From positions 1 through 17,993 of the forward strand of contig JADFWE010000302.1 in assembly GCA_015222915.1 (NCBI GenBank): 17,993 nucleotides of DNA, written 5' to 3'. Below the pieces are notes generated by a model. The model worked only from the letters and a program-made list of their open reading frames with translations. It was not told the DNA's origin and made no database searches. Positions 200-17,526 of the stretch are shown one piece after another; the first letter of the stretch is position 1; the number at the start of each line of letters is the position of its first letter. The stretch is from Pseudomonadota bacterium (lineage in GTDB: Bacteria; Pseudomonadota; Gammaproteobacteria; SZUA-229). The position numbers and the translations under genes are program-made.

Positions 200-1204
200 T
201 CAGCCGCCGGTCATACTCATCAGGCGGACGACCTGATCCGGTTTATTATTGAATTCATGTTTTTCCGGTTTTAGTGAGATGGCATCGATCAGTACGGTTT
301 TTAGCTCATCATCAGTGATACCGTTTCGAAGCAGTGGACGCAATTCTACTTTATCGTCCTGTCCCAGGCAGAGGTAGAGGGTACCGTCGACGGACAGGCG
401 TACGCGGTTGCAGGTCTCGCAGAAGTGCTGTGATATCGGGGTGATAAAACCGATGCGTAGATCGGTGTTTTTTATCTGCACGTAGCGTGCAGGACCGCCG
501 CCGGGCATGACACCGGGAACAAGGTCATAACTCTGTGCCAGCTGCTGCTTCACGGTCTGCAGATCGAGATAATGGTCGGTGGCATCATCGCTGGTCGCAC
601 CCATCGGCATGGTCTCGATGAAGCGCAGGGTGAAGCCGTGCTGCAGGCAAAACCCAACCATGTCTTCAAATTCGTCATCATTGATGCCTTTCATGGCAAC
701 CATGTTGATTTTGATCGGTGTGAAGCCAGCTTCTTTCGCTGCCATCAGGCCATCGAGAACCGGTTGCAGTTCACCACCGGTAATCTCTTTGAAACGCTCT
801 GGCTTTAAGGTGTCCAGGCTGACATTGATCCTGGAAACGCCTGCTTCATGAAGGCTGGCAGCATGTTTTTTTAGCAGCGTTGCATTGGTGCTGAGGGACA
901 GGTCGCTTAGACCGGGCAGTGCGGTAAGACGTGATGAGAGTTCAGTTATACCTTTTCGTACCAGCGGTTCACCACCGGTCAGGCGCAGGCGTGCTACGCC
1001 AAGTTCGGTGAATACTCTGATAACCCGCTCGATCTCATCGAATGTTAGCCAGTGTTCCGGCTGTTCGAAATCCCTGAAATCTTTTGGCATGCAATAGAAA
1101 CAGCGCAGGTTGCACTTATCGGTCACCGACAGGCGCACATATTCGATACGACGTCCGAAAGGGTCGGTGAGTGCTGCGTTGCTATGTATGGTCGTTTTAT
1201 CCAT
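200..1204 (-). CDS. moaA: GTP 3',8-cyclase MoaA (radical SAM, molybdenum cofactor step 1)
   Basis: MoaA is a cytoplasmic radical SAM enzyme that rearranges GTP to 3',8-cyclo-7,8-dihydro-GTP, which MoaC turns into cPMP. The 334 residues fit the family's usual size. The N-terminal cluster motif is C31-x3-C35-x2-C38 (CNLRCFYC), followed by LTGGEP typical of radical SAM enzymes. The second, substrate-binding cluster has C262, C265 and C279 (CETCNRVRLS...CLG). The chain ends in the conserved Gly-Gly needed for activity. The start ATG has only a weak ribosome site, but the N-terminus aligns with family expectation (DPFGRRIEYVRLSVTDKCNLRC). It lies downstream of napC on the same strand with 208 bases between, which hold a palindromic repeat, so it may be the last gene of the nap operon or have its own promoter. 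It serves the Mo cofactor of NapA. Confidence 0.97.
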   Translation of the reverse strand: MDKTTIHSNAALTDPFGRRIEYVRLSVTDKCNLRCFYCMPKDFRDFEQPEHWLTFDEIERVIRVFTELGVARLRLTGGEPLVRKGITELSSRLTALPGLSDLSLSTNATLLKKHAASLHEAGVSRINVSLDTLKPERFKEITGGELQPVLDGLMAAKEAGFTPIKINMVAMKGINDDEFEDMVGFCLQHGFTLRFIETMPMGATSDDATDHYLDLQTVKQQLAQSYDLVPGVMPGGGPARYVQIKNTDLRIGFITPISQHFCETCNRVRLSVDGTLYLCLGQDDKVELRPLLRNGITDDELKTVLIDAISLKPEKHEFNNKPDQVVRLMSMTGG

Positions 1205-4473: not shown

Positions 4474-7011
4474 TCAGGCCTTAACGACCTTAACCGCACA
4501 TTTTTTATAATCCGTTTCCTTGGAAAGCGGATCGGTGGCATCCAGTGTTACCTTGTTGATCAGGCGGCTGGCATCAAACCATGGCACGAAGATCAGACCT
4601 TTCGGTACTTTGTTTCGTCCACGGGTTTCGATACGGGCGACGATCTCACCACGGCGACTCTGAATCTTCGCTGTCAGACCACGGCGGAGACCGCGTGCCT
4701 TGGCATCATCAGGGTGCATGAAGATCACCGCATCCGGGAATGCGCGGTATAACTCAGGTACACGACGGGTCATAGAGCCTGAATGCCAGTGTTCCAGTAC
4801 ACGGCCGGTACATAACCACAGATCGAACTCCTTATCAGGGCTCTCTGCTGCTGGCTCATATGGCGCAGTGATGATGTTGGCCCTGCCGTCTTTCCTGCCG
4901 TAGAAGCGAATATCTTCACCGGTTTTAACGTAGGGGTCGTAACCTTCACGGTAACGCCACAGGGTCTCCTTGCCGTCGATAACCGGCCAGCGTAGACCAC
5001 GGGTATTATGATAGACGTCGAACGGCGCCAGTTCGTGACCTTTCTTGGGTCCTTCGAACTGGAAGCGGCGGTATTCTTCGAACAGACCTTTCTGCAGGTA
5101 GAAACCAAAATCATCCATCTCGTGATTATTGTACTTGTTACCGTCACTGTCGGTCACGGTCTCCCTGGCGAACTGGTCGACCTGACCGTTGGCAAAGAGA
5201 ACCTCGTACAGGGTCTTGCCCTTGTATTCAGGGTTTTTCGCCAGCAGGTCATCGGTCCAGACGTCATCGGTTTTGAAACGTTTGGAGAATTCGACTACCT
5301 GCCACAGGTCGGAACGCGATTCACCAGGAGCATCCACCTGCTGACGCCAGAACTGGGTGCGGCGTTCGGCATTACCATAGGCACCTTCCTTCTCTGTCCA
5401 CATCGCAGTCGGCAGGATCAGGTCCGCCGCCATCGCGGTAACGGTCGGGTAGGGGTCGGAAACCACGATGAAGTTATCAGGGTTACGGTAACCGGGATAG
5501 GTCTCCTCGTTAAGGTTAGCGGCTGCCTGCATGTTGTTATTACACTGTACCCAGTAGGCGTTCAGCTTGCCGTCTTTCAACATGCGGTTCTGCAGCACTG
5601 CGTGGTAGCCGGGTTTACCGGGGATAGTGCCTTCCGGTAATTTCCAGATCTTTTCAGCCAGATCACGATGGCCTTTTTTCTTGACCACGTAATCGGCAGG
5701 CAGACGATGTGAGAAGGTGCCCACTTCGCGTGCGGTGCCACAGGCAGAAGGCTGACCGGTCAGTGAGAACGGACCATTGCCCGGTTCTGAGATCTTGCCG
5801 GTTAACAGATGCACGTTGTACATCAGGCCGTTGGCCCATACACCACGGGTGTGCTGGTTGAAGCCCATGGTCCAGAAGGAAGTGATCTTCTTCTTCGGAT
5901 CGGCATACAGTTTTGCCAGACGCAGCAGCTTTTCTTCCGGTACACCGGATAGTTCCGAGGTGTATTCCAGGGTATAGGGTTCGAGAGATTTCGCGTATTC
6001 CTCGAAGGATATCTTGCTCAGCTTGCCGCCTTTGCCGGTTTTCTTTTTCTCCAGCGGATGATCAGGGCGTAAACCGTAACCGATGTCGGTCGGAGTCTTG
6101 GTAAAGTTCACGTGCTTGCCGATAAAGTCTTTACTGTAGGCTTTGTTCTGCACGATGTAGTTGGCGATGTAATTCAGTATGGCCAGATCCGTCTGCGGGG
6201 TGAAGATCATGTTGTTATCACCCAGATCGAAGCAACGATGTTCGAAGGTCGATAATACGTGAACCTCACTGCCTTTCTTGGTCAGACGGGTATCGGTGAG
6301 GCGAGACCAGAGGATAGGATGCATCTCGGCCATGTTAGAGCCCCACAGAACGAAGGCATCTGCGTGTTCCAGGTCATCGTAACAGCCCATAGGTTCATCC
6401 GCACCGAAGGCACGCATGAAACCACCCACCGCAGAAGCCATACAATGGCGTGCGTTCGGGTCGATATGGTTAGAGCGGAAGCCGGCCTTGTAGAGTTTAG
6501 ATGCGGCATATCCTTCCCATACGGTCCACTGTCCGGAACCGAACATGCCGACGGTAGAGGTCAGTTCTTCGGCTTTCTTGCCTTCGTTAGCTTTTTTGTC
6601 GTGTGCCAGTGCGGCTTTGAATTTTTCTTCCATGACGTCGAAGGCTTTTTCCCAGCTGACCGAGGTGAAGTCACCTTCTTTATCGTACTGGCCGTTGCTC
6701 ATGCGCAGCAGCGGCGTCGTCAGACGATCTTTACCGTACATGATCTTGGACAGGAAGTAGCCTTTGATACAGTTCAGTCCACGGTTGACCGGTGCATCCG
6801 GGTCACCCTGGGTGGCGACCACGCGCCCGTTTTTGGTGCCGACCAGCACGCTACAGCCTGTACCGCAGAACCGGCAGGGCGCTTTGTCCCAACGGATATC
6901 ATCTTTGGTATTTGCCAGTGCTTCTTTTACGCCCGGTATGGTAATGCCTGCTGCGGTAGCGGTTGCGGCGATAGCATTTGTTTTAATGAAATCTCTTCGT
7001 GTTAGTTTCAT
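4474..7011 (-). CDS. napA: NapA, periplasmic nitrate reductase catalytic subunit (Mo-bis-MGD)
   Basis: NapA reduces nitrate to nitrite in the periplasm. The 845-residue precursor starts with a Tat signal (T4-R-R-D-F-I-K, hydrophobic core to about residue 33, ALA before the mature chain). The [4Fe-4S] site is C46-x2-C49-x3-C53 with C81 (CIKG; K83 is the electron-relay lysine of the family). The molybdenum ligand is C190 in the [13 protein letters not shown] context, typical of NapA. The body is a full-length DMSO reductase-family fold, with a molydopterin dinucleotide-binding C-terminal region from about residue 720. The start has an excellent AGGAGG seven bases upstream. napD precedes it by 98 bases. 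Related assimilatory enzymes (NasA) lack the Tat signal and the nap neighbours. Confidence 0.98.
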
Positions 7012-7418: not shown

Positions 7419-7904
7419 CTAATGTACGGAGATCGCATCTACCGGACACACCGAAACGCAGGCACCGCAACCGGTACAATCCGTATCGCTGACCAGCGGA
7501 ATTGAGATTCCCCCCAGACGTGGCGGCATTTTTATCGCACGCGCCTCGCAGGGGTCGTAACAGCCTCTACATTCCACACCCTGAAAGGTGACGCAGGTTT
7601 TTTCGTTGATATCGGCTTTGATCGACCATGGCTCGCGTTGCGGGCTTCTGAGGAGTGCTTTGGGTTGGCAGGCGGCAGTGCAGTCACCGCAGAACAGGCA
7701 TTCGCTGGCGCTGAAATCGATGACGGGAAAATTGGCGCGTGCCGGTTTGATGATGTCTGTCGGGCATGCGGAGATGCAGTCGCCACAGTTGGTGCAGGTC
7801 TCGGTGAAGAGGGCCTCGTCGATCGCCCACGGTGGACGAAGCGGTGATTCTTTTCCTTTGAAATCACCACGAAGAAACTGCATTCTGCTGACTTGAGTGT
7901 TCAT
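7419..7904 (-). CDS. napF: NapF, cytoplasmic ferredoxin-type NapA maturation protein
   Basis: NapF is a cytoplasmic iron-sulfur protein that interacts with NapA before export. Reading from the ATG at 7904 gives 161 residues beginning MNTQVSRMQFLRGDF. Three classical [4Fe-4S] motifs are seen (CTNCGDCISACP, CLFCGDCTAAC, CTGCGACVSVCP), plus an extra Cys group CRGCYDPC between the second and third. The frame stays open to an ATG at 7949, which would add 15 Arg-rich residues without family similarity. The lower start is preferred because the FNR-type promoter would start transcription near 7934, downstream of 7949, and because NapF proteins usually begin just before the LRGD-like stretch. The 7904 start has no strong Shine-Dalgarno. 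It is the first gene of the nap operon. Confidence 0.9.
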   Translation of the reverse strand: MNTQVSRMQFLRGDFKGKESPLRPPWAIDEALFTETCTNCGDCISACPTDIIKPARANFPVIDFSASECLFCGDCTAACQPKALLRSPQREPWSIKADINEKTCVTFQGVECRGCYDPCEARAIKMPPRLGGISIPLVSDTDCTGCGACVSVCPVDAISVH

Positions 7905-7933
7905 CTTATATTGCCGATGCCTTAAAGTTCTGC

Positions 7934-7980
7934 TACGGATGTTATCCATGTTGCAGCCCGTGATACATGACTTAAATCAA
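7934..7980 (-). promoter_or_regulatory. FNR-dependent type promoter of the nap operon
   Basis: On the minus strand 7980-7967 reads TTGAT-TTAA-GTCAT, an 8 of 10 match to the FNR/Anr consensus with one perfect half-site. GATAAC at 7946-7941 is a plausible -10 and puts the start of transcription near 7934. The FNR-site centre is then about 40 bases upstream, the class II position. This would make nap expression respond to low oxygen, as known for FNR control of nap in E. coli. No clear 7-2-7 NarL/NarP pair was found. The site and spacing are seen; function is inferred. Confidence 0.55.
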
Positions 7981-8072: not shown

Positions 8073-8744
8073 TTACTCAGCTGTCAAGCCGCTGCCAGTG
8101 CCCGGGAGCCTCTGGTCGATATTTTTGGCAGGGATGGGGGGCTGGGCTATCGGGCTGGCACGTACCAGGTAGCGAAGTGAACCGCCGGCGGTGGCTGCCT
8201 CAAAAGGGTAGCAGGTTACCAGCACCAGTGAACGGTCATCGCTGTCGTTTGGCAGGCGGAAGGTCTCGCTGTCGACGATCTGGAAACTTTCGACATGATA
8301 TTGCACGCCGCCAGCACGGGTCTGCAGATAGATCCGGTCGTTTATCTTCAGATCTTTCAGGAAGTTAAAATGCGTATCACGGTGCCCGCTGATCATGGTT
8401 ATGCCGCCGCTATCCGGCGTGGCACCGGCAAATGACAGGCCCGGCCCGAACGCCAGGCTGCTGCCGCTGTCACCGGCGAGCACGATCTGTTCGATGCCGT
8501 GCTGCGGCACCCGTAATTTTGCCACCGGCCAGGTGTCTGCCCAGGGCCATGGTCTATGGCTATTGTGAGTATTCGCCTGGTCATCGATCGTCAGCTGCCA
8601 TGAATGATTCAACAGCTGTTGTGCCACCATGGCTTTACCCTGTATCCAGCCGGCCGAGGCCAGCTGCCACAGGCTTAAACTGAACAATATTACGATGACG
8701 ACAGTGCTGAGTATTCTCAGGTGTTTTTGAAAGCAGTCTTTCAC
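8073..8744 (-). CDS. Class GN (Gram-negative, marine proteobacterial type) sortase
   Basis: This is a cysteine transpeptidase that should cleave the sorting signal of the neighbouring target protein and attach it to an envelope amine. The 223 residues have an N-terminal membrane anchor (about 11-31) with the catalytic domain outside the cytoplasm. The triad residues are visible: His121 in SGHRDTHF, Cys178 in LVLVTCYP (TLxTC-like) and Arg191 in LRYLVRA. The start is GTG at 8744, overlapping the target gene's TGA as GTGA, with no good Shine-Dalgarno, so translation is likely coupled. The pairing of sortase and VIT/vWA target matches the proteobacterial dedicated sortase system defined in TIGRFAMs/NCBI. 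The last 12 residues contain LPGTG, itself a sorting-like motif. Substrate acceptor in the cell is unknown. Confidence 0.93.
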   Translation of the reverse strand: MKDCFQKHLRILSTVVIVILFSLSLWQLASAGWIQGKAMVAQQLLNHSWQLTIDDQANTHNSHRPWPWADTWPVAKLRVPQHGIEQIVLAGDSGSSLAFGPGLSFAGATPDSGGITMISGHRDTHFNFLKDLKINDRIYLQTRAGGVQYHVESFQIVDSETFRLPNDSDDRSLVLVTCYPFEAATAGGSLRYLVRASPIAQPPIPAKNIDQRLPGTGSGLTAE

Positions 8745-11023
8745 GATATCAACCCATGTATGGTCTTCGTATGGTCTGCGTATGCTCTACGTATGCAGGG
8801 CACACGATACAACGAAAGCGCAGCAATAAAAAACAGCAGGCCAAGCAGCAGCTTAAGTTCCGAACCTGTCGCCGTCTGTGCCAGTCTCATCTGTGCCATC
8901 ATGGTATTCCCGTTACCGGCGTTAGCCCGTTTCCAGCCATGCGGCAGGTTGTTTTTCATGCGCTGCTGGTACAGCAGTTCGCTGATATTGACCGGCGTAA
9001 CATCCACTGCCACCAGGCTTGTGAAACGGCTGACCAGGTGATGTTGCAGCGCGGTACTGGTGATTTCCTGTTTGATCGCATCACGAACATTATCTGCCGT
9101 CGATTCATGGCGCAGGCTCATCAGCGATGCGACCTTTTCACGCGCCCATGCCACTCTGATGCCGTCGCGACTGCCATCGCGACTCATGTTCTCTGCTGAT
9201 GTTTTACCCTGCAGTAGCTGTGCCGCAGTGATACTGCTATGCCACTCGGTATTGCCGTAGTCGCCCCGGATGTCGATGCTATCCGGCAGGTTTTTACCCT
9301 TGATCAATATGGTGGCGGTCTCTCCTGCATACAGGTCCGGGATGATGTTTGGAAACATTTCATAAGTGTTGTGGTCATCCTGGCTGGTGTTGAGGTCCAG
9401 CTGTATATTGATCAGTGCCGGGTTCTCCAGCTTTTTAAACAGCGCGACCGTCTTCTCATGAACTTCGTTGACATCACCGATGTAGGTAAATGTACCGCGG
9501 CCTTTGTTCGCGGCCTTGCGCATGAAGTAGGAGTTAGGAGCTGAACCGATGCCGATGGTAAACAGCCGGTTATTGCCCAGCTGATCATCGATCACCTTAA
9601 ACAGTTCGACTTCATTACTGATATTGCCATCGGTCAGAAAAACCACCTGGCGGAAACGGGAAAAGGTTTCCTGCTTCGATAAGGCAAGTTTTAGCGCGCC
9701 CAGCATCTCGGTACCGCCATCGGCCTGCAGGTTGTCGATGTAGTGTCTTGCGATATTTTTATATTGTGCCGATGCGATGACGGCCCCGGGGAACAGGCTG
9801 CCGCTCTCATGATTGAACCAGATAATGTTAAATCTATCGATGGACGAAAGACCATCCAGTGCGGTGATCAGTGACGCTTTTGCCTGGTCGATCGATGTGC
9901 CAGCCATAGAGCCGGAGATGTCCAGTACGAAGATGACATCACGTGCCTGGACTTTCTGCTGCAGGTGGCCGAGATCAGACGGCAGTACTGTCAGCATGGT
10001 GTAGTGATCACCGTCTATCTCCTGTTCGAATACCGATAGCTGCGGCTTATCGATCAGTTCCGGTTTCCAGACCAGTTCGAAATCACGGTCAGCTTTGATC
10101 GATTCGCCCATGGTGGAGATGCTGTAGCGATTTTCACTGGTCTGTTTGATATCGATCTGGTGATAAGAGCTATCCAGTTCGGCAAGGCTGACACCGGCAT
10201 CGAGCAGGATGTGGATACGTGTGGGATTGTTATCATTGTCTGTCTCGTCGGTTTGTGTGTAGACGCTGGTCTGATCGGGGAGCGGTGAGACATATTTCTG
10301 CAGAGCGGTATTCGCTTTGTCAGCGCCCGTCTGATGCAGGTCAGGGTTGTAGCGTGGACCGACCACCATAGGAAAACGTAGACGGTAGCGTTCGTCTCTA
10401 TATTCGAGCACCTGCTGGTATTCAAATTCCACTGTGATCTGTTCACCCGGTGCGATATTGGCCAGTGATGTAGTAAAAACATTCGGCCGCTGCTGTTCGA
10501 TCAGGCTGGCTTTTTTACCGGCGGCTTTTGCCTGCTGATAGATCTTCTTCGCTTCCACCCGTTCTTTTACTCTGCCTTCGATGATGCGCTCACCGATCCT
10601 CATCCTGAACCGGTCAACGGCCGCTCTTTCAGGTAGCGGGAAAACATAGATGCCTTCTGCCCAGTATTCACTGCTGTTGATAAACATCTGCCTGACCGTG
10701 GCGCGGGCGATGGCACCGGTGATGTTGATATCGACATCGGTCTGCATCTGCAGGGCTTCGATATAGATATTCTGTCGTGTGGTGCTATCAGCGTCAGGTG
10801 TTGTTCCATAGTCGGGTTTTAACCATACGGAGCCATGCTGTGACTGGTAAGGACTATCTGCACCTTGTTCTGTAGAGTCATTTATGTCTGCGTAGACATA
10901 TTGAAATAACAATCCGAAAACCAGGTAGACGCTGGCAACGACCAGTACCTTGCGTACCAGGTTTAATGATCTCGAGCAGATGGTATGTTGCGGTTTAACA
11001 CGTTGAAAATAGCAGGTATTCAT
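8741..11023 (-). CDS. Marine proteobacterial sortase target protein (VIT and vWA domains)
   Basis: This is the probable dedicated substrate of the adjoining sortase. The 760 residues start with a signal/membrane segment (about 25-45). A VIT domain follows (about 85-210). A von Willebrand A domain spans about 361-535, with an intact MIDAS: D368-I-S370-G-S372, T438 and D465. The C-terminus has the tripartite sorting layout: motif LAQTATG (714-720), hydrophobic stretch 724-738, and basic tail RVPCIRR. The usual LPxT proline is alanine here. The ATG at 11023 is chosen because AGGAG lies six bases upstream. An upstream GTG at 11056 is in frame but sits inside a hairpin and has no ribosome site. 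By family analogy it may be a metal-dependent adhesin on the cell surface; its real role is unknown. Confidence 0.93.
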   Translation of the reverse strand: MNTCYFQRVKPQHTICSRSLNLVRKVLVVASVYLVFGLLFQYVYADINDSTEQGADSPYQSQHGSVWLKPDYGTTPDADSTTRQNIYIEALQMQTDVDINITGAIARATVRQMFINSSEYWAEGIYVFPLPERAAVDRFRMRIGERIIEGRVKERVEAKKIYQQAKAAGKKASLIEQQRPNVFTTSLANIAPGEQITVEFEYQQVLEYRDERYRLRFPMVVGPRYNPDLHQTGADKANTALQKYVSPLPDQTSVYTQTDETDNDNNPTRIHILLDAGVSLAELDSSYHQIDIKQTSENRYSISTMGESIKADRDFELVWKPELIDKPQLSVFEQEIDGDHYTMLTVLPSDLGHLQQKVQARDVIFVLDISGSMAGTSIDQAKASLITALDGLSSIDRFNIIWFNHESGSLFPGAVIASAQYKNIARHYIDNLQADGGTEMLGALKLALSKQETFSRFRQVVFLTDGNISNEVELFKVIDDQLGNNRLFTIGIGSAPNSYFMRKAANKGRGTFTYIGDVNEVHEKTVALFKKLENPALINIQLDLNTSQDDHNTYEMFPNIIPDLYAGETATILIKGKNLPDSIDIRGDYGNTEWHSSITAAQLLQGKTSAENMSRDGSRDGIRVAWAREKVASLMSLRHESTADNVRDAIKQEITSTALQHHLVSRFTSLVAVDVTPVNISELLYQQRMKNNLPHGWKRANAGNGNTMMAQMRLAQTATGSELKLLLGLLFFIAALSLYRVPCIRRAYADHTKTIHGLIS

Positions 11024-11048
11024 ATTTGGCTCCTGTGAAGGAAATATC

Positions 11049-11068
11049 GGTGGCACTTGCGTGCCACC
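11049..11068 (-). other. Perfect 8-bp hairpin in the leader of the sortase target gene
   Basis: GGTGGCAC and GTGCCACC pair perfectly around a four-base loop. The hairpin is 24 bases past the stop of the DUF4258-like gene and about 26 bases before the target gene's ATG, with the ribosome site between. No T-run follows on either strand, so it is not an ordinary rho-independent terminator. An mRNA-stabilising, processing or attenuating role inside the operon is inferred. Confidence 0.7.
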
Positions 11069-11091
11069 ACATGTGAGAGAGGATCTTTTTG

Positions 11092-11577
11092 TCAGAAATT
11101 TTTGATGCGCTTGTAGCGATGACCGACGGTGACGATCCGGTTACCGGCAGTGACCAGGTAGGCGTTCATCAGGCTGGATAACCGACGGATGACAACCTTG
11201 CCGACATCGGATGTCAGCAGGCGCACGCTTTTTTTATCGAAGTAACATACGATGGTGCCGTTGATGCTTCGTTTGCGTGATCCGTACTGGCATAACCAGT
11301 GGATGATGAGTGGTGGGATACAGCGTTGCTGTGATCTCTCCAGTGCGTGGCTGGTCATCCTGAAACCGCGTTCACGACTGAAGATGTTCATGTAGACCAT
11401 ATCCTCACCGCCCATGGCGGTGCCATTACCGACATCATGTCTGCCCTCGTATCCGTTACCTTTTAAACTGGGTAAAGGTCCGTCGACCCCGATCATTGGC
11501 AGGTCCAGTTCTGCAGAGGTACCGGTCGGCACCTCTGAAGGCATCACGGTTGTCTGCTGCGCTTTCAAGGCCATCAC
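11092..11577 (-). CDS. Small DUF4258-like protein of unknown function in the sortase operon
   Basis: The C-terminal 90 residues (MTSHALERSQQRCIPPL onward) carry the pattern S-H-A-x-E-R-x-x-x-R-x-I, a Tyr-Phe-Asp-Lys segment and a final T-V-G-H-R-x-K-R-I. That pattern recalls DUF4258-type proteins, a family linked by others to small RelE-like folds; this similarity is from memory and moderate. The first 60 residues are Gly/Pro/Ser-rich and look like a linker. The longest reading begins GTG-ATG at 11577/11574, two bases after the pdsO stop. Its GAGG is too close to the ATG for a good ribosome site. A better-spaced start could be the ATG at 11391, with GAGG 11 bases upstream, giving 99 residues. 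No signal peptide is seen. No antitoxin-like partner lies beside it. Its place between pdsO and the target gene suggests cotranscription with the sortase system. Confidence 0.65.
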   Translation of the reverse strand: MMALKAQQTTVMPSEVPTGTSAELDLPMIGVDGPLPSLKGNGYEGRHDVGNGTAMGGEDMVYMNIFSRERGFRMTSHALERSQQRCIPPLIIHWLCQYGSRKRSINGTIVCYFDKKSVRLLTSDVGKVVIRRLSSLMNAYLVTAGNRIVTVGHRYKRIKNF

Positions 11578-11579
11578 CT

Positions 11580-12704
11580 CTAGAACCGGCTGCCGGCATC
11601 GGCAACAACGGGGCTGATGCTGATTTCAGAAGCATCGTTAGCAGATACGTCAGCAGACACGTCGTCTGCATCCATCTCGGACAATGCTGTTTTCATGCTG
11701 TGGATCGAGTCGACCGTTTTTCGCTCGAAACGGATGACTACCTTGCGGTCGAAGGTGTAACCGTCAAGATCACCGGGTGCTGAAACCATCTTCATCTCAC
11801 CGAAGGCTCTGCTGATGATGCGGCTTTCATCGACACCGGCATCGATCAGTTGCTGGCGAACTGTTTCGATACGCTCATTGGCCAGTGCGATATTCTGTGA
11901 CTTGTCACCACGTCGGTCGGTATAACCGTCGAGATGGATCTCCAGGCTGTCCATGGTGTTCAGCAGATCGGCGATGGCTGCCAGACGGGCAGGATAGAAG
12001 CTTTCGATATCGGTACTGCCGGAACGGAAATACACATCGAGGCTCAGATCAGCAGTAAGGATATCCACAAGTTCGTCCTGTCGCGTATATACGTCCTCAT
12101 CGAGAACCGGTTCTATAGCGCCCAGCTGAGCGACCTGTATGCCGTCATGCGTGGTGTTCTGCTCACCGGAGGTATCCGTTGAAAACAGATCGTCTGATGA
12201 TGCGGTGTATGCCACTGTCTCGCCTGGTGAGTCATCGGCAACTGCCAGCGTTGTTTGCTGAAGCTCGTCTGTATCTTCTTCAGCGATGCTCTGTTCTGAG
12301 CCGATCAATGCGCCAATAAGGCCGCCGACGACAAAACCGACAGGGCCGGCAACAACAGTACCGGCGATAGCACCGACACCCATGCCTGAATACATTTGGT
12401 TTTTATCGGATACTTCCTTATTATCTTCTGCCTTTGATAGACTTGTCTCAGTAGCAGGGTTCTCAGTGATGGATTCTGCGATAATAGTGCTTTCGACGAC
12501 GGTGTCCGTTGTGCTGACTTCTGCAGAGCCTGTTTCGACGGAGCCTGTCTGATCTGTATTGATACTGGCAGCAACAGAAAGGTCAGACGCCGGACTGTCT
12601 GCCGGTAAAGTATCAGCAAGGGCCAGTGTATTCAGCGCAGCGCCAGACAGCAGTGCAGTAGACATCGCCAGTGTGATAGCAGTATTTAATATTGATTTTT
12701 TCAT
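11580..12704 (-). CDS. pdsO: PdsO, OmpA-family protein of the proteobacterial dedicated sortase system
   Basis: This is an envelope protein that is probably peptidoglycan-bound through its OmpA-like domain. The 374-residue precursor has a clear signal peptide (MKKSILNTAITLAMSTALLS, with cleavage after ALA at about residue 30). A long acidic Thr/Ser-rich stretch follows (31-105), then a glycine-zipper hydrophobic segment (about 108-135: GVGAIAGTVVAGPVGF...GGLIGALIG). The OmpA C-terminal domain is at about 222-327, with LDGYTDRRGDKSQNIALANE and R278 matching the peptidoglycan-binding pattern. The ATG at 12704 has GGAG seven bases upstream, better than the in-frame upstream start at 12719. It is the first gene of the minus-strand sortase operon and diverges from pdsR. 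OmpA domain, glycine zipper and sortase neighbours together point to PdsO. Confidence 0.9.
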   Translation of the reverse strand: MKKSILNTAITLAMSTALLSGAALNTLALADTLPADSPASDLSVAASINTDQTGSVETGSAEVSTTDTVVESTIIAESITENPATETSLSKAEDNKEVSDKNQMYSGMGVGAIAGTVVAGPVGFVVGGLIGALIGSEQSIAEEDTDELQQTTLAVADDSPGETVAYTASSDDLFSTDTSGEQNTTHDGIQVAQLGAIEPVLDEDVYTRQDELVDILTADLSLDVYFRSGSTDIESFYPARLAAIADLLNTMDSLEIHLDGYTDRRGDKSQNIALANERIETVRQQLIDAGVDESRIISRAFGEMKMVSAPGDLDGYTFDRKVVIRFERKTVDSIHSMKTALSEMDADDVSADVSANDASEISISPVVADAGSRF

Positions 12705-12919
12705 TATCGTTCTCCACAAATAATTGATATGTTCGGGTAAAAGGTTCAGTGGTCATACATTCGAAAGTGCATGTTGTGTCTTCCCCTGTACTTCCACGGT
12801 TGCCATTAGAACAAGGCAGCTGTTTTCAATCTTTGGCAGTCGATGGACGAAATATGGAGAGATTATGGAGATGCTCAAAAACAACAGGAGCGGAATTCAT
12901 TCCGCGATAAGGTGTTCAT
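12705..12919. promoter_or_regulatory. Divergent control region between pdsO and pdsR
   Basis: This 215-base spacer must hold promoters for both arms of the sortase locus. Promoter hexamers are weak: a possible plus-strand TTGCCA at 12800-12805 with TTCAAT at 12825-12830 is too widely spaced (19). No strong minus-strand pair is visible. Weak hexamers would fit activation by PdsR itself, but no clear repeat operator was identified. A 26-codon frame at 12843-12923 ends in ATGTGA, overlapping the pdsR start codon. Confidence 0.4.
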
Positions 12920-13633
12920 GTGATACAAACCATCGCCATCGTCGAAGATGACAGAGACCAGCGTCACTATTACGCTGAAGCCTTGCGTGCGCATGGTTAT
13001 GAGGTCAGTGAATACGAAGACCGGGAGCAGGCGATCGCCGCGTTCGAACAGGCGCTGCCGGAGCTGGCGATACTGGATATCGCGTTAAAAACCGATGTCG
13101 GCGGCGGTTATGAAGTCTGCCGTTATCTGCAGCAGCGTGATGCGACTCTGCCGGTCATCTTTCTCACCAGCCGCGGTGATGAACTGGATAAGATCTATGG
13201 TCTGCAGCTGGGTGCCTGGGATTACCAGACCAAACCGGTGTCACTGGAGTTTCTGATCGTACGCATCGAATCTTTCCTTCAGATAAAGCAGTTAAATTCG
13301 AATGCGGTAGCTGTCAAAGGGGAAGATGCGAATCAACGTTTCGGTGATCTTAAGATCAATAGCAGAGCCATGGTCTGCCACTGGAAGGATCAGGAAGTTA
13401 ACCTGACGCCGACTGAATTCTCACTCTTGCAGGCAATGCTGGATGCTGCGCATGAGACGGGTCAGGGTGTCAGTGTTGATGATCTGATCAAGGCCACCCG
13501 TCAGGGTATCGTCGAAGAGAATACCATCAGTACCCATATCCTTCACATCAGAAAAAAATTCAAGAAGATCGATACGGACTTCCAGTGTATAAAAACACGG
13601 TACGGTCTGGGCTATCAATGGATGTGCAGTTGA
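12920..13633 (+). CDS. pdsR: PdsR, OmpR-type response regulator of the sortase system
   Basis: This is a two-component transcription factor, 237 residues long. The receiver domain (1-120) has acidic residues E9, D10 and D11, phospho-acceptor D53 (LAILDIAL), T83 and K105 (TKP). The loop after D53 holds a glycine-rich KTDVGGGY, and the usual Asp-Asp before the TKP motif reads W100-D101. The C-terminal winged helix (about 145-236) shows LTPTEFSLLQAML and the ending TRYGLGYQW typical of OmpR/PhoB proteins. The start is GTG at 12920, with AAGG seven bases upstream. pdsS follows 16 bases after its stop. It probably controls the divergent pdsO-sortase operon (inference from layout). Confidence 0.93.
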   Translation: MIQTIAIVEDDRDQRHYYAEALRAHGYEVSEYEDREQAIAAFEQALPELAILDIALKTDVGGGYEVCRYLQQRDATLPVIFLTSRGDELDKIYGLQLGAWDYQTKPVSLEFLIVRIESFLQIKQLNSNAVAVKGEDANQRFGDLKINSRAMVCHWKDQEVNLTPTEFSLLQAMLDAAHETGQGVSVDDLIKATRQGIVEENTISTHILHIRKKFKKIDTDFQCIKTRYGLGYQWMCS

Positions 13634-13649
13634 AGTCGAACAGGCTCAA

Positions 13650-15677
13650 ATGCTCAGACGGGGTGCCTGGATGAAGTTGCGTACCCGACTATTGATCTTC
13701 AGTTCCGTCTTCCTGGTATTGCTGCCGTGGTTCGGTTTTCATTTTACCGAAAAAGTCGAACAGTCATTATTGCAGGGGCAGGAAGAAGCGCAGTCCATGG
13801 TGGCATCCGCCATCGCCACCGTGTTGAATGGTTATACCGGTCTTTTTGATATCGACGAGGATGCTCTGTATGTCTATCCGGTCAAGCAGCTTATCGATGT
13901 CGACGGTTATGACGAGGACTGGCAATCATTAGCCCAGCGTTTTACTGATTATGCAGACGGGGTTTTCTCGCTGCTACTGACTGATCGTGATGATTACCTG
14001 TATGTTTATATAAAAGTTAGAGACGACGATATCATCTACCGCAATCCGCGCTATGTGCCGCTGGATTCCAGTGACCATGTTCGCCTGGAATACCTGGACA
14101 AAGATAACCGGCGTCATCGACTCGTCGTCCTCGCAGAAGCGCAGGGCAGGGGCAGTGTCTATGAAGTTAAAGATGACTGGCGCTACTGGCTCACGGGGAA
14201 AAATGTTAATGCGGTTTATGCTTTCTGGCGTGAGACCCAGAGAGGATATGACGTAGAGCTACGCTTGCCCCGGAAATGGCTGGAGCCTAACCGCCGCCTG
14301 TCGATCAGCGTGGTCAACGTCTTCAGCGATAACGAACGATACCCGGACACCGTGCTGGCGACCCATAGTTCAGATTACAGCGCCCTGAATCCACTGCTGT
14401 TTCAATCTTCCGAGATCAGCAACGTGATAAAAAATCTCAGTGAGTCTGATTCCAGGATATGTGTCATCGATAAATACCGACGTGTGCGTGCGGCCATCGG
14501 CGGACAGCAGATCCAGATCCCGCTATGTACGAATATCGATAAGGTTAAAGATGCGCTTGTCGATAGAGCACTCTCCGGCGAGACACAGGTAACCCGCCTG
14601 CAGCAGGGTGATGAAACATTGATCGTGGCAGCACATCCGGTGTTCAATGACGTCGATAGAGGTGCTGAGATCATCGGCGCAGTACTGGTCAGCAAGAACA
14701 GCCGCCAGGTACTAGCTCTACAGCGCGATACCTTGAAAGAGATCGCCTATGCTGCTATCGGGATCTTTCTACTGGCATTTATCAGCCTGCTGTTTTTCAG
14801 TTCGTGGCTGGCGTTCCGCATCAATCGCCTGAAGAATCAGGCAGCGTCATTGGTCGATGATAGCGGGCGTTTTGTTCAGAATATCACTCTGATCGATAAT
14901 CTGGCTGATGACCGTAGCGGTGATGAACTCGGTGAACTGTCTCGCAGCTTTTCATCGTTGCTGGATAAGCTGAACCGTTATACCTCCTTCCTGGAGACCG
15001 TGCCGCGTATGTTACGCCATGAGATCTTAAATCCGGTCAATACCATTAGCATGTCGCTGCAGAAGGTGAACGAGATGTATCCTTCCTCATCTAGAGAGGC
15101 TGCTACTGCCAGTAATGCGGTCATGCAGCTGCAGCTGATTGTTTCCAGCCTGACGGAAGCGGCGAATATCGACGAAGCGCTTGCTCAGGATGATGTTGAA
15201 ACTATCGATATCGCTGCCTTGCTCACGGAGTATGTCGAGAATTCACAGCTCAAACACCCGCAGGCAAAACTGTGTTATTCAGGCAGTAACAGAGGGGTTT
15301 ATATCGAAGCGAATGATATTAGAATCGTTCAGCTGCTGGACAAGATTAAAGACAATGCGCTGGACTTCTCGCAGCCGGAAACGGAAATCTGTTTTCAGCT
15401 TGATGTAAATCATAGCGGTTTCGTGCATATTCATATAAAAAACGAGGGCGAAACAATTCCGCAATCGCAGCTCGACATCCTGTTTCAGGGTATGGTCTCG
15501 CATCGTGCAGAAAAGACCGGACAGCCGCATCTTGGCATCGGTCTCTATGTGGCGCATCGTATTGCCCGGTTCCATCAGGGTGAGCTGAAGATAGCCAATC
15601 GTGAAGATATACAGGGCGTGGTAGTGAGTTTAATATTGCCCGGGTTAGCGGATACAACGAAGAAACTTAACGAGTAA
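13650..15677 (+). CDS. pdsS: PdsS, membrane sensor histidine kinase of the sortase system
   Basis: PdsS is the likely kinase partner of PdsR. The 675 residues show a first membrane segment (11-30), a large periplasmic sensor (31-365) and a second membrane segment (366-387). A HAMP-like linker follows (about 388-440), then the H-box L455-R-H457-E-I-L-N-P, N-box K567-D-N569-A and a G2 box HLGIGLYVAHRI (627-638). The G1 position reads NEGETIP instead of the common DNGxGIP. The first half of the sensor (about 80-225), with DVDGYDEDW and DDYLYVYIKV, resembles CBM9/DOMON-like beta-sandwich domains, so a carbohydrate or similar ligand is possible (inference). Either ATG 13650 (CAGG five bases upstream) or ATG 13671 (giving MKLRTRLLIF) may be the start. 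It ends four bases before moaB. Confidence 0.92.
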   Translation: MLRRGAWMKLRTRLLIFSSVFLVLLPWFGFHFTEKVEQSLLQGQEEAQSMVASAIATVLNGYTGLFDIDEDALYVYPVKQLIDVDGYDEDWQSLAQRFTDYADGVFSLLLTDRDDYLYVYIKVRDDDIIYRNPRYVPLDSSDHVRLEYLDKDNRRHRLVVLAEAQGRGSVYEVKDDWRYWLTGKNVNAVYAFWRETQRGYDVELRLPRKWLEPNRRLSISVVNVFSDNERYPDTVLATHSSDYSALNPLLFQSSEISNVIKNLSESDSRICVIDKYRRVRAAIGGQQIQIPLCTNIDKVKDALVDRALSGETQVTRLQQGDETLIVAAHPVFNDVDRGAEIIGAVLVSKNSRQVLALQRDTLKEIAYAAIGIFLLAFISLLFFSSWLAFRINRLKNQAASLVDDSGRFVQNITLIDNLADDRSGDELGELSRSFSSLLDKLNRYTSFLETVPRMLRHEILNPVNTISMSLQKVNEMYPSSSREAATASNAVMQLQLIVSSLTEAANIDEALAQDDVETIDIAALLTEYVENSQLKHPQAKLCYSGSNRGVYIEANDIRIVQLLDKIKDNALDFSQPETEICFQLDVNHSGFVHIHIKNEGETIPQSQLDILFQGMVSHRAEKTGQPHLGIGLYVAHRIARFHQGELKIANREDIQGVVVSLILPGLADTTKKLNE

Positions 15678-15681
15678 AGAC

Positions 15682-16200
15682 ATGACAGATAAAGAGATAG
15701 TACCGATACGTATAGCCATATTAACGGTGTCTGACAGCCGTACCGAAGCCGATGATACATCGGGTGATGCACTGGTTGACCGTTTAACATCCGCCGGCCA
15801 CAAGCTGGTCGAAAAAGTTATCTGTGTGGATGACAAATACAAGCTCCGTGAGCTGCTGTCGCGCTGGATCGCTGACAGTGATGTCGACGTGGTGATCAGT
15901 ACCGGCGGTACCGGACTGACCGGTCGTGATATTACGCCGGAAGCGGTCAAGCCGCTGTTGGACAAAGAGATCGAAGGTGTCGGTGAATTGTTTCGCCTGG
16001 TCTCCTATGAAGAGATCGGCACTTCGACCATCGCTTCACGCTGTATCGGCGGAGTAGCGAATGCTACTTTTATATTCTGCCTGCCGGGTTCGACCGGTGC
16101 CTGCCGAACTGGCTGGGACAAGGTGATAGCGCCGCAGCTGGATTGTAATACACGGCCTTGTAATATCGTGGCGCTGATGCCGAGACTGCTGGAGAAATAA
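15682..16200 (+). CDS. moaB: MoaB/Mog-family molybdopterin adenylyltransferase
   Basis: This protein is expected to act in Moco synthesis, adenylating molybdopterin (Mog role) or a related step. The MoaB role in bacteria that also have Mog is less clear. The 172 residues show the family landmarks: ILTVSDSR near the N-terminus, the nucleotide-binding ISTGGTGLTGRDITPEA (about 71-88), and LPGSTGACRTGWDKVIAPQL (about 133-152). The size fits MoaB. The ATG lies only four bases after the pdsS stop, so it is very likely cotranscribed with pdsRS. The ribosome site is weak and translation may be coupled. moeA follows after 69 bases. Confidence 0.95.
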   Translation: MTDKEIVPIRIAILTVSDSRTEADDTSGDALVDRLTSAGHKLVEKVICVDDKYKLRELLSRWIADSDVDVVISTGGTGLTGRDITPEAVKPLLDKEIEGVGELFRLVSYEEIGTSTIASRCIGGVANATFIFCLPGSTGACRTGWDKVIAPQLDCNTRPCNIVALMPRLLEK

Positions 16201-16269: not shown

Positions 16270-17526
16270 ATGAAAGAAATTAAAACAAGTGGTGGTGACT
16301 GCTGTGCGACACCGGGATTAATGTCAGTCGAACAGGCGATAGATAATATTCTATCGCCTGCTGTAGCTGTTGAAGAAACTGAAAGTGTTGATATCCTCGA
16401 TGCGCTGAATCGTATACTGGCAGAAGATCTGTCTTCAACGATAGATGTGCCCGGTTACGATAACAGTGCGATGGATGGTTATGCTGTGCGTAGTGAAGAC
16501 TGTCAGCAATCAGGCGTAAAACTTCCTGTATCTCAGCGTATTCCTGCCGGTCAGGTAGGAGAAGCTTTACAGTCTGGTACGGCTGCCCGGATCTTTACCG
16601 GCGCACCGGTTCCCGAAGGCGCTGATGCCGTGGTCATGCAGGAGATGTGTGAAGCCGCAACTGTGGCCGATGGTGAGCAGGTAACGATCAACACGGTGGT
16701 AAAGGCGGGCAGCAATGTACGGCGCGCCGGTGAGGATATTAAAGAGGGCAGCGTTGTTCTGAAAGCCGGTAAACGACTACGAGCACAGGAGCTGGGTCTG
16801 TTGGCATCAGTCGGGCTTGCTGATTTTAAAGTCAAAAGAAAATTAAAAGTCGCTACTTTCTTTACCGGTGATGAAATTGTGCTGCCGGGCCAGCCTTTAA
16901 AAGCCGGGCAGATCTATAATTCAAATCGCTATACTCTACGCGGTCTCATGCAGTCGATGAACTGCGAGATCATCGATCTGGGTATCGTGCCCGATACACT
17001 GGATGATACGGTCAAGGTATTGAAAGAGGCGGCAGCCTGTGCCGATCTGGTCGTCACCTCTGGTGGTGTTTCGGTCGGTGAAGAGGATTATGTGCGTATC
17101 GCGCTCGAAGAACTCGGCGAGCTTTCCATGTGGCGTATCGCGATGAAGCCAGGCAAGCCGGTAGCGTTTGGTAAGATAGACGATACTTTATTTATGGGTC
17201 TGCCCGGCAATCCGGTTTCAGTGTTTGTCACCTTTTTACTATTTGCCCGTGCCTTGATTCTAAAACTGCAGGGTGTGGATGACTGTATTGCTAAACGTGT
17301 TTCGGTGACTGCAGATTTTGACTGGCCAAAAGTAAAACGCCAGGAATACTTACGTGTACGTCTAGTGCAAAAAGACAAGCAGGCCGTTGCGCAGATATAT
17401 CCACACCAGGGCTCCGGTGTATTGTCTTCAGCAAGCTGGGCAGAGGGCCTGGTCGAAGTGTCTGTCGACAGGGAAATAAAAAAAGGTGATACGGTTGATT
17501 ATCTTTCGTTTGAAGGGCTTTTGTAA
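16270..17526 (+). CDS. moeA: MoeA, molybdopterin molybdenumtransferase
   Basis: MoeA inserts molybdate into adenylated molybdopterin, the final step to Mo-cofactor. The 418 residues match family length (about 410). Landmarks in order are YDNSAMDGYAVR (64-74, with catalytic-region D69), FTGAPVPEGADAVVMQE, the FFTGDEIV segment, NSNRYTLRGLM, the MPT-binding TSGGVSVGEEDYV, MKPGKPVAFG and GLPGNPVSVFVTF, followed by the C-terminal domain IV. The N-terminus carries a short extra stretch with Cys-Cys (residues 11-12). The start has GAG about six bases upstream. A perfect 11-bp inverted repeat lies at codons 22-31. It is the last gene of the pdsR-pdsS-moaB-moeA run. It supports maturation of NapA. Confidence 0.96.
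   Translation: MKEIKTSGGDCCATPGLMSVEQAIDNILSPAVAVEETESVDILDALNRILAEDLSSTIDVPGYDNSAMDGYAVRSEDCQQSGVKLPVSQRIPAGQVGEALQSGTAARIFTGAPVPEGADAVVMQEMCEAATVADGEQVTINTVVKAGSNVRRAGEDIKEGSVVLKAGKRLRAQELGLLASVGLADFKVKRKLKVATFFTGDEIVLPGQPLKAGQIYNSNRYTLRGLMQSMNCEIIDLGIVPDTLDDTVKVLKEAAACADLVVTSGGVSVGEEDYVRIALEELGELSMWRIAMKPGKPVAFGKIDDTLFMGLPGNPVSVFVTFLLFARALILKLQGVDDCIAKRVSVTADFDWPKVKRQEYLRVRLVQKDKQAVAQIYPHQGSGVLSSASWAEGLVEVSVDREIKKGDTVDYLSFEGLL
16333..16360 (+). other. Perfect 11-bp inverted repeat inside the start of moeA
   Basis: CAGGCGATAGA (16333-16343) and TCTATCGCCTG (16350-16360) are exact reverse complements with a six-base loop TAATAT. The stem lies about 63 bases into moeA and encodes part of QAIDNILSP. 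A stem this long is unlikely by chance. It could slow early translation or act as an mRNA processing site; it could also be a protein-binding palindrome. No T-run follows. Confidence 0.75.

What the first reader, a model, noticed from the sequence alone, without database searches (positions are those of the whole stretch)
8073..15677. Complete dedicated sortase system set inside a nitrate reductase/Moco gene block
The window carries pdsO, a VIT/vWA target, a class GN sortase, pdsR and pdsS, flanked by moaA-napFDAGHBC on one side and moaB-moeA on the other. Sortase systems are rare in Gram-negative bacteria, and this family is known mainly from genome comparison with no settled function. Its insertion into an anaerobic respiration block raises the question of whether the anchored vWA protein is made under low oxygen or nitrate.
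Basis: partly seen in the sequence, partly recalled or inferred. Interest (0 to 1): 0.8.

Follow-up and report, generated by a model that had tools for sequence, protein, structure and literature searches.

The report
Wall-anchoring protein system beside molybdenum genes
A bacterium carries a known but little-studied set of genes that probably senses sugars of its cell wall and fixes a protein to that wall; the set sits among genes for breathing nitrate, but comparison with relatives suggests that this neighbourhood is a habit of one genus rather than a link to nitrate or low oxygen.

Summary
The gene set is real: class GN sortase, a VIT/vWA target ending in LAQTAT, pdsO and divergent pdsR-pdsS, between moaA-nap and moaB-moeA.

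The nap link does not generalise. Of 53 GN-sortase loci in other families of the class, 0 have nap (at 40% identity) and 1 a Moco gene; in a wider, partly overlapping set the Moco count is 1 of 71. Within the genus the Moco side is kept (12 of 12 readable loci) but nap only in 5 of 11, and one relative has nap and Moco genes without pds. napF has its own FNR-like site; the pds promoter has none, but carries three 11-bp repeats in 13 of 13 genomes, a candidate PdsR box.

The PdsS ectodomain is predicted to be a CBM9-type carbohydrate-binding domain plus a WalK-like Cache domain. With class D-like T|A cleavage, and a related S. meliloti target under ExoS/ChvI control, the best reading is a wall-glycan-sensing module that anchors a vWA protein to peptidoglycan. 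Two relatives lost sortase and most of the target but keep pdsO, orf161 and pdsRS. Known kind, new variant; sensing and anchoring are inferred.

The parts
8073..8744 (-). class GN sortase (srt); His121, Cys178 and Arg191 in GHRDTHF, VTCYPF and SLRYLV are the expected catalytic residues (triad recalled)
   Evidence: TIGR03784 193.8 bits, above cut-off; PF04203; positions
8741..11023 (-). VIT/vWA sortase target, 760 aa from ATG 11023; metal-site (MIDAS, recalled) residues D368, S370, S372, T438, D465
   Evidence: TIGR03788 712.4 bits; PF08487 and VWA; these residues invariant in 17 of 17 aligned sequences, window included
8867..8884 (-). sorting signal LAQTAT, followed by a hydrophobic helix and a tail with basic residues; proposed cleavage T|A
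   Evidence: sequence and position; census of C-termini
11092..11577 (-). orf161: DUF4258-like small protein; conserved core about 11095-11400, start codon uncertain; no obvious signal peptide by eye (no predictor run)
   Evidence: alignments of 10 and 22 sequences; AlphaFold pLDDT 81.7; fold matches
11580..12719 (-). pdsO: N-terminal signal-like and glycine-rich segments (by eye), C-terminal OmpA domain; likely ATG at 12704
   Evidence: TIGR03789 151.8 bits against cut-off 152.2; PF00691
12844..12869 (+). candidate PdsR box: three TGGA half-sites at 11-bp period in the pdsO-pdsR divergent promoter
   Evidence: 13 of 13 intergenic regions with at most 1 mismatch, 12 exact; 0.007 regions expected in mononucleotide shuffles; exact match here
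12920..13633 (+). pdsR, OmpR/PhoB-type response regulator
   Evidence: TIGR03787 best hit, 221.5 bits against cut-off 335.7; PF00072, PF00486
13650..15677 (+). pdsS, sensor histidine kinase (RHEILNP at residue 456)
   Evidence: TIGR03785 best hit, 399.4 bits against cut-off 612.2; HATPase_c; position
13866..14360 (+). PdsS ectodomain part 1: CBM9-like carbohydrate-binding domain (about residues 73-237)
   Evidence: AlphaFold pLDDT 90.4; Foldseek 7nwn E 5.9e-6, 1i82 E 1.6e-5; PF06452 in 15 of 39 homologues, not in the window's own copy
14388..14699 (+). PdsS ectodomain part 2: WalK-like Cache domain (about residues 247-350)
   Evidence: PF23846 in 17 of 39, window E 1.4e-4, under the gathering score; Foldseek 4ywz prob 1.00, rmsd 3.4, E 2.8e-3
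15682..16200 (+). moaB, start codon 4 bp after the pdsS stop
   Evidence: TIGR02667; coordinates
16270..17526 (+). moeA
   Evidence: NF007960 441.8 bits
7967..7980 (-). FNR-like site upstream of napF (TTGATTTAAGTCAT, 2 mismatches)
7419..7949 (-). napF
   Evidence: TIGR00402
7110..7340 (-). napD
   Evidence: sequence; 75-80% identical copies between napF and napA in relatives; no NCBIfam match at E 1e-20
4474..7011 (-). napA
   Evidence: NF010055 1522.5 bits, TIGR01706 1481.8 bits
1413..4429 (-). napG (3500-4429), napH (2595-3503), napB (2115-2561), napC (1413-2042)
   Evidence: NF007012, NF007013 and TIGR02161 over cut-off; NapB by PF03892, its NCBIfam score is under the cut-off (124.6 against 230)
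200..1204 (-). moaA
   Evidence: TIGR02666 382.2 bits

Best explanation
This is a dedicated sortase system that most likely works as a cell-wall (peptidoglycan or wall-associated glycan) sensing and protein-anchoring module. PdsS has a periplasmic CBM9-like carbohydrate-binding domain followed by a WalK-like Cache domain (predicted here); it would sense glycan or wall state (inferred) and phosphorylate PdsR (inferred from family). PdsR would bind three 11-bp repeats in the divergent promoter (element shown, binding inferred) and control both pdsO-orf161-target-srt and its own operon. The target is exported, held by its C-terminal helix, cut by the sortase between T and A of LAQTAT (inferred from SrtC of Bacillus anthracis) and joined to peptidoglycan, most simply to meso-diaminopimelate (inferred). 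PdsO would bind peptidoglycan through its OmpA domain (family knowledge). The position between nap and moaB-moeA is a genus-level feature of gene order, with possible read-through from pdsRS into moaB-moeA; nap has its own promoter.
For: Gene identities. PdsS ectodomain: AlphaFold pLDDT 90.4, pTM 0.85; the best PDB folds are CBM9 modules, one with glucose and one with cellobiose (E 5.9e-6 to 1.6e-5), and the second half matches the S. aureus WalK sensor domain (4ywz, prob 1.00, rmsd 3.4); Pfam CBM9_1 in 15 of 39 and Cache_WalK in 17 of 39 homologues. Candidate PdsR box in 13 of 13 divergent promoters; in a scan of 18 genus genomes it lies at the pds promoter of the 13 that have one. Best PDB sequence match of the sortase is 2ln7, E 2e-10, and its best NCBIfam matches after class GN are class D; SrtC cleaves LPNT|A and uses m-Dpm (PMC3297441, passages). 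S. meliloti SMc01580, paired with an annotated sortase target (PMC6637203, table row), has its upstream region bound by ChvI (PMC3687685, passage) and is induced at pH 6 (PMC10659215, passages). A review cites a pdsS mutation in carbapenem-resistant S. algae (PMC12114352, passages).
Against: No ligand, binding, cleavage or anchoring was tested. The window's own PdsS does not reach Pfam CBM9_1 and is under the Cache_WalK gathering score; 4ywz has E 2.8e-3, a range in which unrelated antibody chains also appear; sugar-binding residues were not examined. PdsR and PdsS fall below the equivalog cut-offs. Most distant pdsR promoters lack the box: 26 of 84 loci with pdsR have any hit with at most 2 mismatches nearby. 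Deleting the putative sortase gene srtA of S. oneidensis had no significant effect on anode current (PMC8176591, passages). Many GN-sortase loci show no such regulator: pdsR in 25 of 53, pdsS in 22 of 53 (BLAST-based and partly contig-limited). The primary S. algae paper is not held.
Confidence: 0.55

Rival explanations
1. One reading: the anchored vWA protein belongs to anaerobic nitrate respiration and is made under low oxygen or nitrate together with nap.
For: Adjacency to nap in 5 of 11 readable same-genus loci.
Against: 0 of 53 class loci outside the family with nap; nap missing beside pds in G013 and G014 and replaced in G006; a same-genus genome has the nap and Moco genes without pds between (L118); no FNR-like site with at most 1 mismatch in 13 pds promoters.
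Confidence: 0.08
2. Coincidence: pds landed in a molybdoenzyme slot and nothing connects them; moaB-moeA keep a promoter of their own inside pdsS.
For: Other genera of the family have pds elsewhere (0 of 17 beside nap or Moco genes) and other content in the slot (complete in L128 and L129, partial in L124 and L130); G008 lacks pds there (L118).
Against: moaB or moeA stays directly behind pdsS in 12 of 12 readable loci; gaps are -4 to 170 bp in the 10 relatives measured and 4 bp in the window.
Confidence: 0.3
3. Functional capture: in this genus moaB-moeA are part of the pdsRS operon, so molybdenum-cofactor synthesis follows the state of the cell envelope.
For: 4-bp gap in the window, 4-bp overlap in G010; shared upstream box in 13 genus genomes.
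Against: Gaps of 96, 132 and 170 bp in three genomes leave room for another promoter; moaB is not behind pdsS in G014, where moeA is; no expression data.
Confidence: 0.2
4. The sortase joins the target to another protein (for example PdsO) or to itself instead of peptidoglycan.
For: Some sortases use a lysine of another protein (PMC3297441, passages on a pilin sortase); PdsO is encoded beside the target.
Against: Sequence is nearest to class D; pdsO is detected in only 11 of 53 class loci, although BLAST misses divergent copies.
Confidence: 0.15

Closest known systems
Proteobacterial dedicated sortase system (TIGR03784, 03785, 03787, 03788, 03789)
   Same: Sortase, VIT/vWA target, OmpA-like PdsO, response regulator and kinase together; sortase and target pass the curated cut-offs.
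   Different: PdsR and PdsS below cut-offs, PdsO just below; an extra DUF4258-like gene; LAQTAT signal; pdsRS lead straight into moaB-moeA.
SrtC of Bacillus anthracis (LPNTA; class D by recall)
   Same: Best PDB sequence match is 2ln7 (this enzyme by recall); T|A cleavage of a TA signal.
   Different: Works in sporulation of a Gram-positive with two substrates; class D NCBIfam cut-offs not reached here.
WalKR cell-wall two-component system
   Same: The Cache domain of PdsS resembles WalK's by Pfam and by fold.
   Different: PdsS adds a CBM9-like domain, and in this genus the candidate box was tied only to its own locus.
ExoS/ChvI control of SMc01580 in Sinorhizobium meliloti
   Same: A protein paired with an annotated sortase target is a target of an envelope-stress two-component system.
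   Different: The passages treat ChvI as a global regulator and never name a sortase (0 occurrences).
DUF4258 proteins and BrnT-like folds
   Same: The orf161 model resembles a phage DUF4258 protein (rmsd 1.8, prob 1.00) and BrnT (TM 0.56 by target length).
   Different: No fold match reaches E 0.001; Pfam DUF4258 in 1 of 10 members at E 0.039.

Membership tests
Proteobacterial dedicated sortase system | Class GN sortase over TIGR03784 cut-off | tested here: met
   193.8 against 158.25 bits
Proteobacterial dedicated sortase system | Adjacent target over TIGR03788 cut-off, with sorting signal, membrane helix and basic residues | tested here: met
   712.4 against 551.65 bits; C-terminus read
Proteobacterial dedicated sortase system | PdsO over TIGR03789 cut-off | tested here: inconclusive
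   151.8 against 152.2 bits, profile positions 7-242 of 243
Proteobacterial dedicated sortase system | Response regulator over TIGR03787 cut-off | tested here: not met
   221.5 against 335.7 bits; still the best family by 87 bits
Proteobacterial dedicated sortase system | Histidine kinase over TIGR03785 cut-off | tested here: not met
   399.4 against 612.2 bits; still the best family by 278 bits. The sortase-target pair is filed as a member; the equivalog label is not claimed for the two regulators
Proteobacterial dedicated sortase system | Covalent anchoring of the target | not testable with these tools
   needs wall digestion and mass spectrometry
Class D sortase | Score over NF033746 or NF058671 cut-off | tested here: not met
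   75.7 against 165 and 83 against 140 bits
CBM9 carbohydrate-binding domain (PdsS part 1) | CBM9 fold | tested here: met
   Foldseek 7nwn E 5.9e-6, prob 1.00, TM 0.59 by target length, on a predicted model
CBM9 carbohydrate-binding domain (PdsS part 1) | Pfam CBM9_1 match | tested here: inconclusive
   15 of 39 homologues, best E 2.4e-5, but not the window's own copy
CBM9 carbohydrate-binding domain (PdsS part 1) | Sugar binding and conserved binding residues | not tested
   model coordinates were not inspected; needs a binding assay
WalK-type Cache domain (PdsS part 2) | Pfam PF23846 over gathering score | tested here: inconclusive
   22.6 against 27 bits, E 1.4e-4; fold match 4ywz
DUF4258 (orf161) | Pfam PF14076 match | tested here: inconclusive
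   1 of 10 members at E 0.039; fold match to a DUF4258 phage protein at E 0.021
FNR regulon (pds promoter) | FNR-like site conserved in the promoter | tested here: not met
   0 of 13 with at most 1 mismatch; 3 of 13 with 2, not at one place

The most novel reading that the evidence does not exclude
In this genus a wall-glycan-sensing two-component system, built from a CBM9 sugar-binding domain and a WalK-type Cache domain, has captured moaB-moeA, so that molybdenum-cofactor synthesis and hence the molybdoenzymes follow cell-envelope state; and the sensor half (pdsO-orf161-pdsRS) has a function of its own that outlives the sortase and its target.
Probability: 0.2. Interest if true: 0.65.

Novelty: new variant of a known kind. 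Interest (0 to 1): 0.48.

Why it matters
Sortases in Gram-negative bacteria have no settled role (so PMC10581121, passages). The predicted CBM9 plus WalK-like Cache architecture of PdsS and a conserved candidate PdsR box turn that open question into direct tests: which glycan the kinase binds, and whether the regulator controls the sortase genes. It also links the GN-sortase target to a studied envelope-stress regulator through a homologue that the rhizobium passages name only by locus tag. And it removes a tempting lead: the neighbourhood with nitrate respiration belongs to one genus.

Tried and rejected
Nap/Moco enrichment as a general rule: rejected on three sets of loci. The sets overlap: at least five records sit in two of them, judged by equal contig length (L038/L155, L041/L151, L043/L199, L050/L230, L086/L202). 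Joint FNR control: rejected on promoters; with 2 mismatches FNR-like sites in the window are at chance level (11 against 9.54 expected), so the napF site rests on its conservation in relatives. A wide PdsR regulon: the genus scan gave 25 hits in 18 genomes, 13 at pds promoters and 12 elsewhere (1 of these exact), against 5 for the control pattern; the 12 were not studied, apart from two whose regions were fetched (L268, L269) and held no match to the reference proteins. orf161 as a known enzyme: no PDB sequence match and no fold match under E 0.001. A target relative in viral contigs: none. MoeA tree for gain and loss of pds: poorly resolved, 2 of 15 inner branches starred by its header. Regular expressions for sortase catalytic motifs missed many copies: HRDTH in 114 of 141, TC.P in 132 of 141, so no claim is made on their universality. 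The regular expression for sorting signals matched 74 of 143 C-termini; by eye many of the other 69 also look like signals, but they were not tallied. The 143 include a few targets without a sortase in reach and do not include the window's own.

An earlier count said 10 of 18 genus genomes have the sortase; the right count is 9 of 18.
Full report
What is there. The window holds, from left to right, moaA, napC, napB, napH, napG, napA, napD, napF, srt, target, orf161 and pdsO on the minus strand, then pdsR, pdsS, moaB and moeA on the plus strand. It is one whole contig of a fragmented genome. The sortase and target are over the curated NCBIfam cut-offs; pdsO is 0.4 bits short; pdsR and pdsS have the dedicated-sortase models as clear best hits but stay under the equivalog cut-offs. 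The target has a VIT and a vWA domain, the five metal-site residues invariant in 17 of 17 aligned sequences, and relatives of known structure in PARP4 and inter-alpha-trypsin inhibitor heavy chains. Its C-terminus is LAQTAT, a hydrophobic helix and a tail with basic residues. Among 143 C-termini, LPQTAT is the commonest form caught (26) and LAQTAT the second (8); the pattern used caught 74 of 143.

A missed gene. Between pdsO and target lies orf161 (aligned). It is present in 13 of 13 same-genus loci that cover this stretch (the window; L024, L026, L028, L030, L032, L033, L035, L119, L121; L265, L266, L267) and in 11 of 17 loci of other genera of the family, which belong to genera g10 and g13. 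BLAST found it in 0 of 53 other class loci. A profile search hit 4 of 369 class genomes including this one; the other three are much weaker, and none of the three regions fetched around them (L161, L162, L163) holds a sortase match. An AlphaFold model (pLDDT 81.7) gives no fold match under E 0.001 but resembles a DUF4258 phage protein (rmsd 1.8) and, more weakly, BrnT.

Is the nitrate neighbourhood general? No. The class sample of 369 genomes has 56 with a GN-sortase match. I read the loci of the 53 outside the family: none has nap, one (L228) has moeA. Of 80 loci from named genomes (the best 80 of 287 confirmed), 71 have a sortase in reach; none has nap, one (L040, Sedimenticola thiotaurini) has a moaA, and L040 and L062 also have a molybdoenzyme only 23-24% like NapA. 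Of 17 loci in other genera of the family, none. The threshold is 40% identity to the window's proteins. Both flanks reach 8 kb in 31 of 53, 43 of 71 and 7 of 17 loci, so some neighbours are out of sight, and the sets share at least five records.

Inside the genus. A sortase was found in 9 of 18 genomes including this one. Four more (G002, G009, G011, G017) have the pds promoter and genes but no sortase in the data: in G002 and G011 the contig ends inside the target; in G009 and G017 the target is cut to its N-terminal signal segment and the sortase is not found, while pdsO, orf161, pdsR and pdsS remain (pdsS of G017 in two contig pieces). In G017 the stub is followed by a remnant of napC, residues 164-209 at 78% identity (L266:3897-4034), a scar consistent with a deletion that took sortase and nap together. 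In the other five (G001, G007, G008, G012, G016) no pds was seen; G001, G012 and G016 also gave no match to moaA or moeA. moaB or moeA stands behind pdsS in 12 of 12 loci where that side is on the contig. On the other side, of 11 readable, nap follows in G000, G003, G005, G009 and G010; G013 and G014 have moaA directly; G004 a NapC-like gene and moaA; G006 a NapC-like gene and another molybdoenzyme; G015 an unidentified gene; G017 the scar. G008 has moaA-nap and moaB-moeA with another gene and no pds between (L118), and other genera have another molybdoenzyme between moaA and moaB-moeA (complete in L128 and L129). So the slot is an older molybdoenzyme site, pds a resident of this genus, and nap a variable one. 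A MoeA tree was too poorly resolved to date the changes.

Regulation. The pdsO-pdsR promoter holds a block conserved in 13 of 13 genomes of three genera, with TGGA half-sites at 11-bp period (12 exact, 1 with one mismatch; mononucleotide shuffles give 0.007 regions). That spacing is what PhoB-type regulators use (recalled). An exact block was also seen before pdsR in two distant loci, L072 and L198; but of 84 loci with pdsR, relatives of this subgroup included, only 26 have any hit with at most 2 mismatches nearby, one of them on the opposite strand. In the genus it occurs at the pds promoter of the 13 genomes that have one (one with a mismatch), with 12 scattered other hits against 5 for the control pattern. 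napF has an FNR-like site with at most 1 mismatch in 4 of 6 genomes; the window has 2 mismatches, and G008 has only 2-mismatch sites at other places. No pds promoter of 13 has one with at most 1 mismatch. pdsS and moaB are 4 bp apart in the window; in ten relatives measured the gap to moaB (moeA in G014) is -4 to 170 bp.

What PdsS sees. The ectodomain model (39 sequences, pLDDT 90.4, pTM 0.85) matches CBM9 modules (7nwn, 7nwo with glucose, 1i82 with cellobiose; E 5.9e-6 to 1.6e-5) and, in its second half, the WalK sensor domain (4ywz; prob 1.00, rmsd 3.4, but E 2.8e-3, where antibody chains also appear). Pfam agrees: CBM9_1 in 15 of 39 homologues (not the window's own) and Cache_WalK in 17 of 39 (the window at E 1.4e-4, under the gathering score). 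Sugar binding was not tested.

How it likely works. The sortase's nearest solved sequence is 2ln7, and class D is its next NCBIfam neighbour. SrtC of B. anthracis, a class D enzyme by recall, cuts LPNT|A and uses meso-diaminopimelate (PMC3297441, passages), a residue that Gram-negative peptidoglycan also has (established knowledge). This makes T|A cleavage and wall attachment the simplest reading. In S. meliloti, SMc01580, paired in PMC6637203 with an Ensifer protein annotated as a sortase target (80% in the table row), has its upstream region bound by ChvI (PMC3687685, passage) and rises at pH 6 (PMC10659215, passages); it is listed with a value of 1.25 in a table of genes that differ in a mutant without phosphatidylcholine (PMC8343143, table row; direction inferred). 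SMc01581, which I recall as its neighbour, rises with a host peptide (PMC12714254, passages). None of these four texts names a sortase. A review (PMC12114352, passages) cites a pdsS mutation in carbapenem-resistant S. algae; the primary paper was not held. Deleting the putative sortase gene of S. oneidensis left anode current unchanged (PMC8176591, passages). Together these favour envelope sensing over respiration.

What is known in print. Searches for pdsO, class GN sortase, dedicated sortase system, pdsS with Shewanella, sortase with inter-alpha-trypsin, CBM9 with histidine kinase and sortase, and related terms turned up no listing that describes a CBM9 domain in PdsS, a PdsR box or orf161. 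The library holds open-licence papers only, listings were capped (20 of 5,611, 12 of 3,773), and I read listings and passages, not whole papers. PMC10581121 (passages) calls class GN sortases poorly described and their Gram-negative role unknown.

Noticed in passing
L119:8831-9016 and L266:3611-3865: Two same-genus genomes (G009, G017) lack the sortase and keep only the N-terminal signal segment of the target, yet keep pdsO, orf161, pdsR, pdsS and the promoter repeats.
   Followed up: partly
L266:3897-4034: The stub in G017 is followed by a C-terminal remnant of napC (78% over 46 residues), as if one deletion removed sortase and nap together.
   Followed up: yes
L211, L212, L217, L223, L225, L229: Several GN-sortase loci have a response regulator only 31-44% like pdsR beside or near the pair, so the regulator may have been swapped.
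   Followed up: no
L228:5367-6629 and L040:14123-15148: The only two Moco genes (40% identity or more) seen near GN sortases outside the genus: a moeA 2.7 kb and a moaA 1.6 kb away.
   Followed up: no
G003:C79:1850-1875 (L256): One exact copy of the three-repeat pattern away from pds; its neighbours were not read.
   Followed up: no
window 15400-15413 and 37-50: FNR-like sites with 1 mismatch inside pdsS and beyond the 3' end of moaA; not followed, the count in the window as a whole is at expectation.
   Followed up: no
L049, L052, L061, L064, L077, L079: Loci from alphaproteobacterial records with target and sortase but no detected pdsR, pdsS or pdsO of this type, in line with control by a regulator encoded elsewhere, such as ChvI.
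   Followed up: no
L162:9339-9629 and L163:2877-3188: Distant orf161 relatives (32-33%) with no sortase in the region fetched.
   Followed up: no
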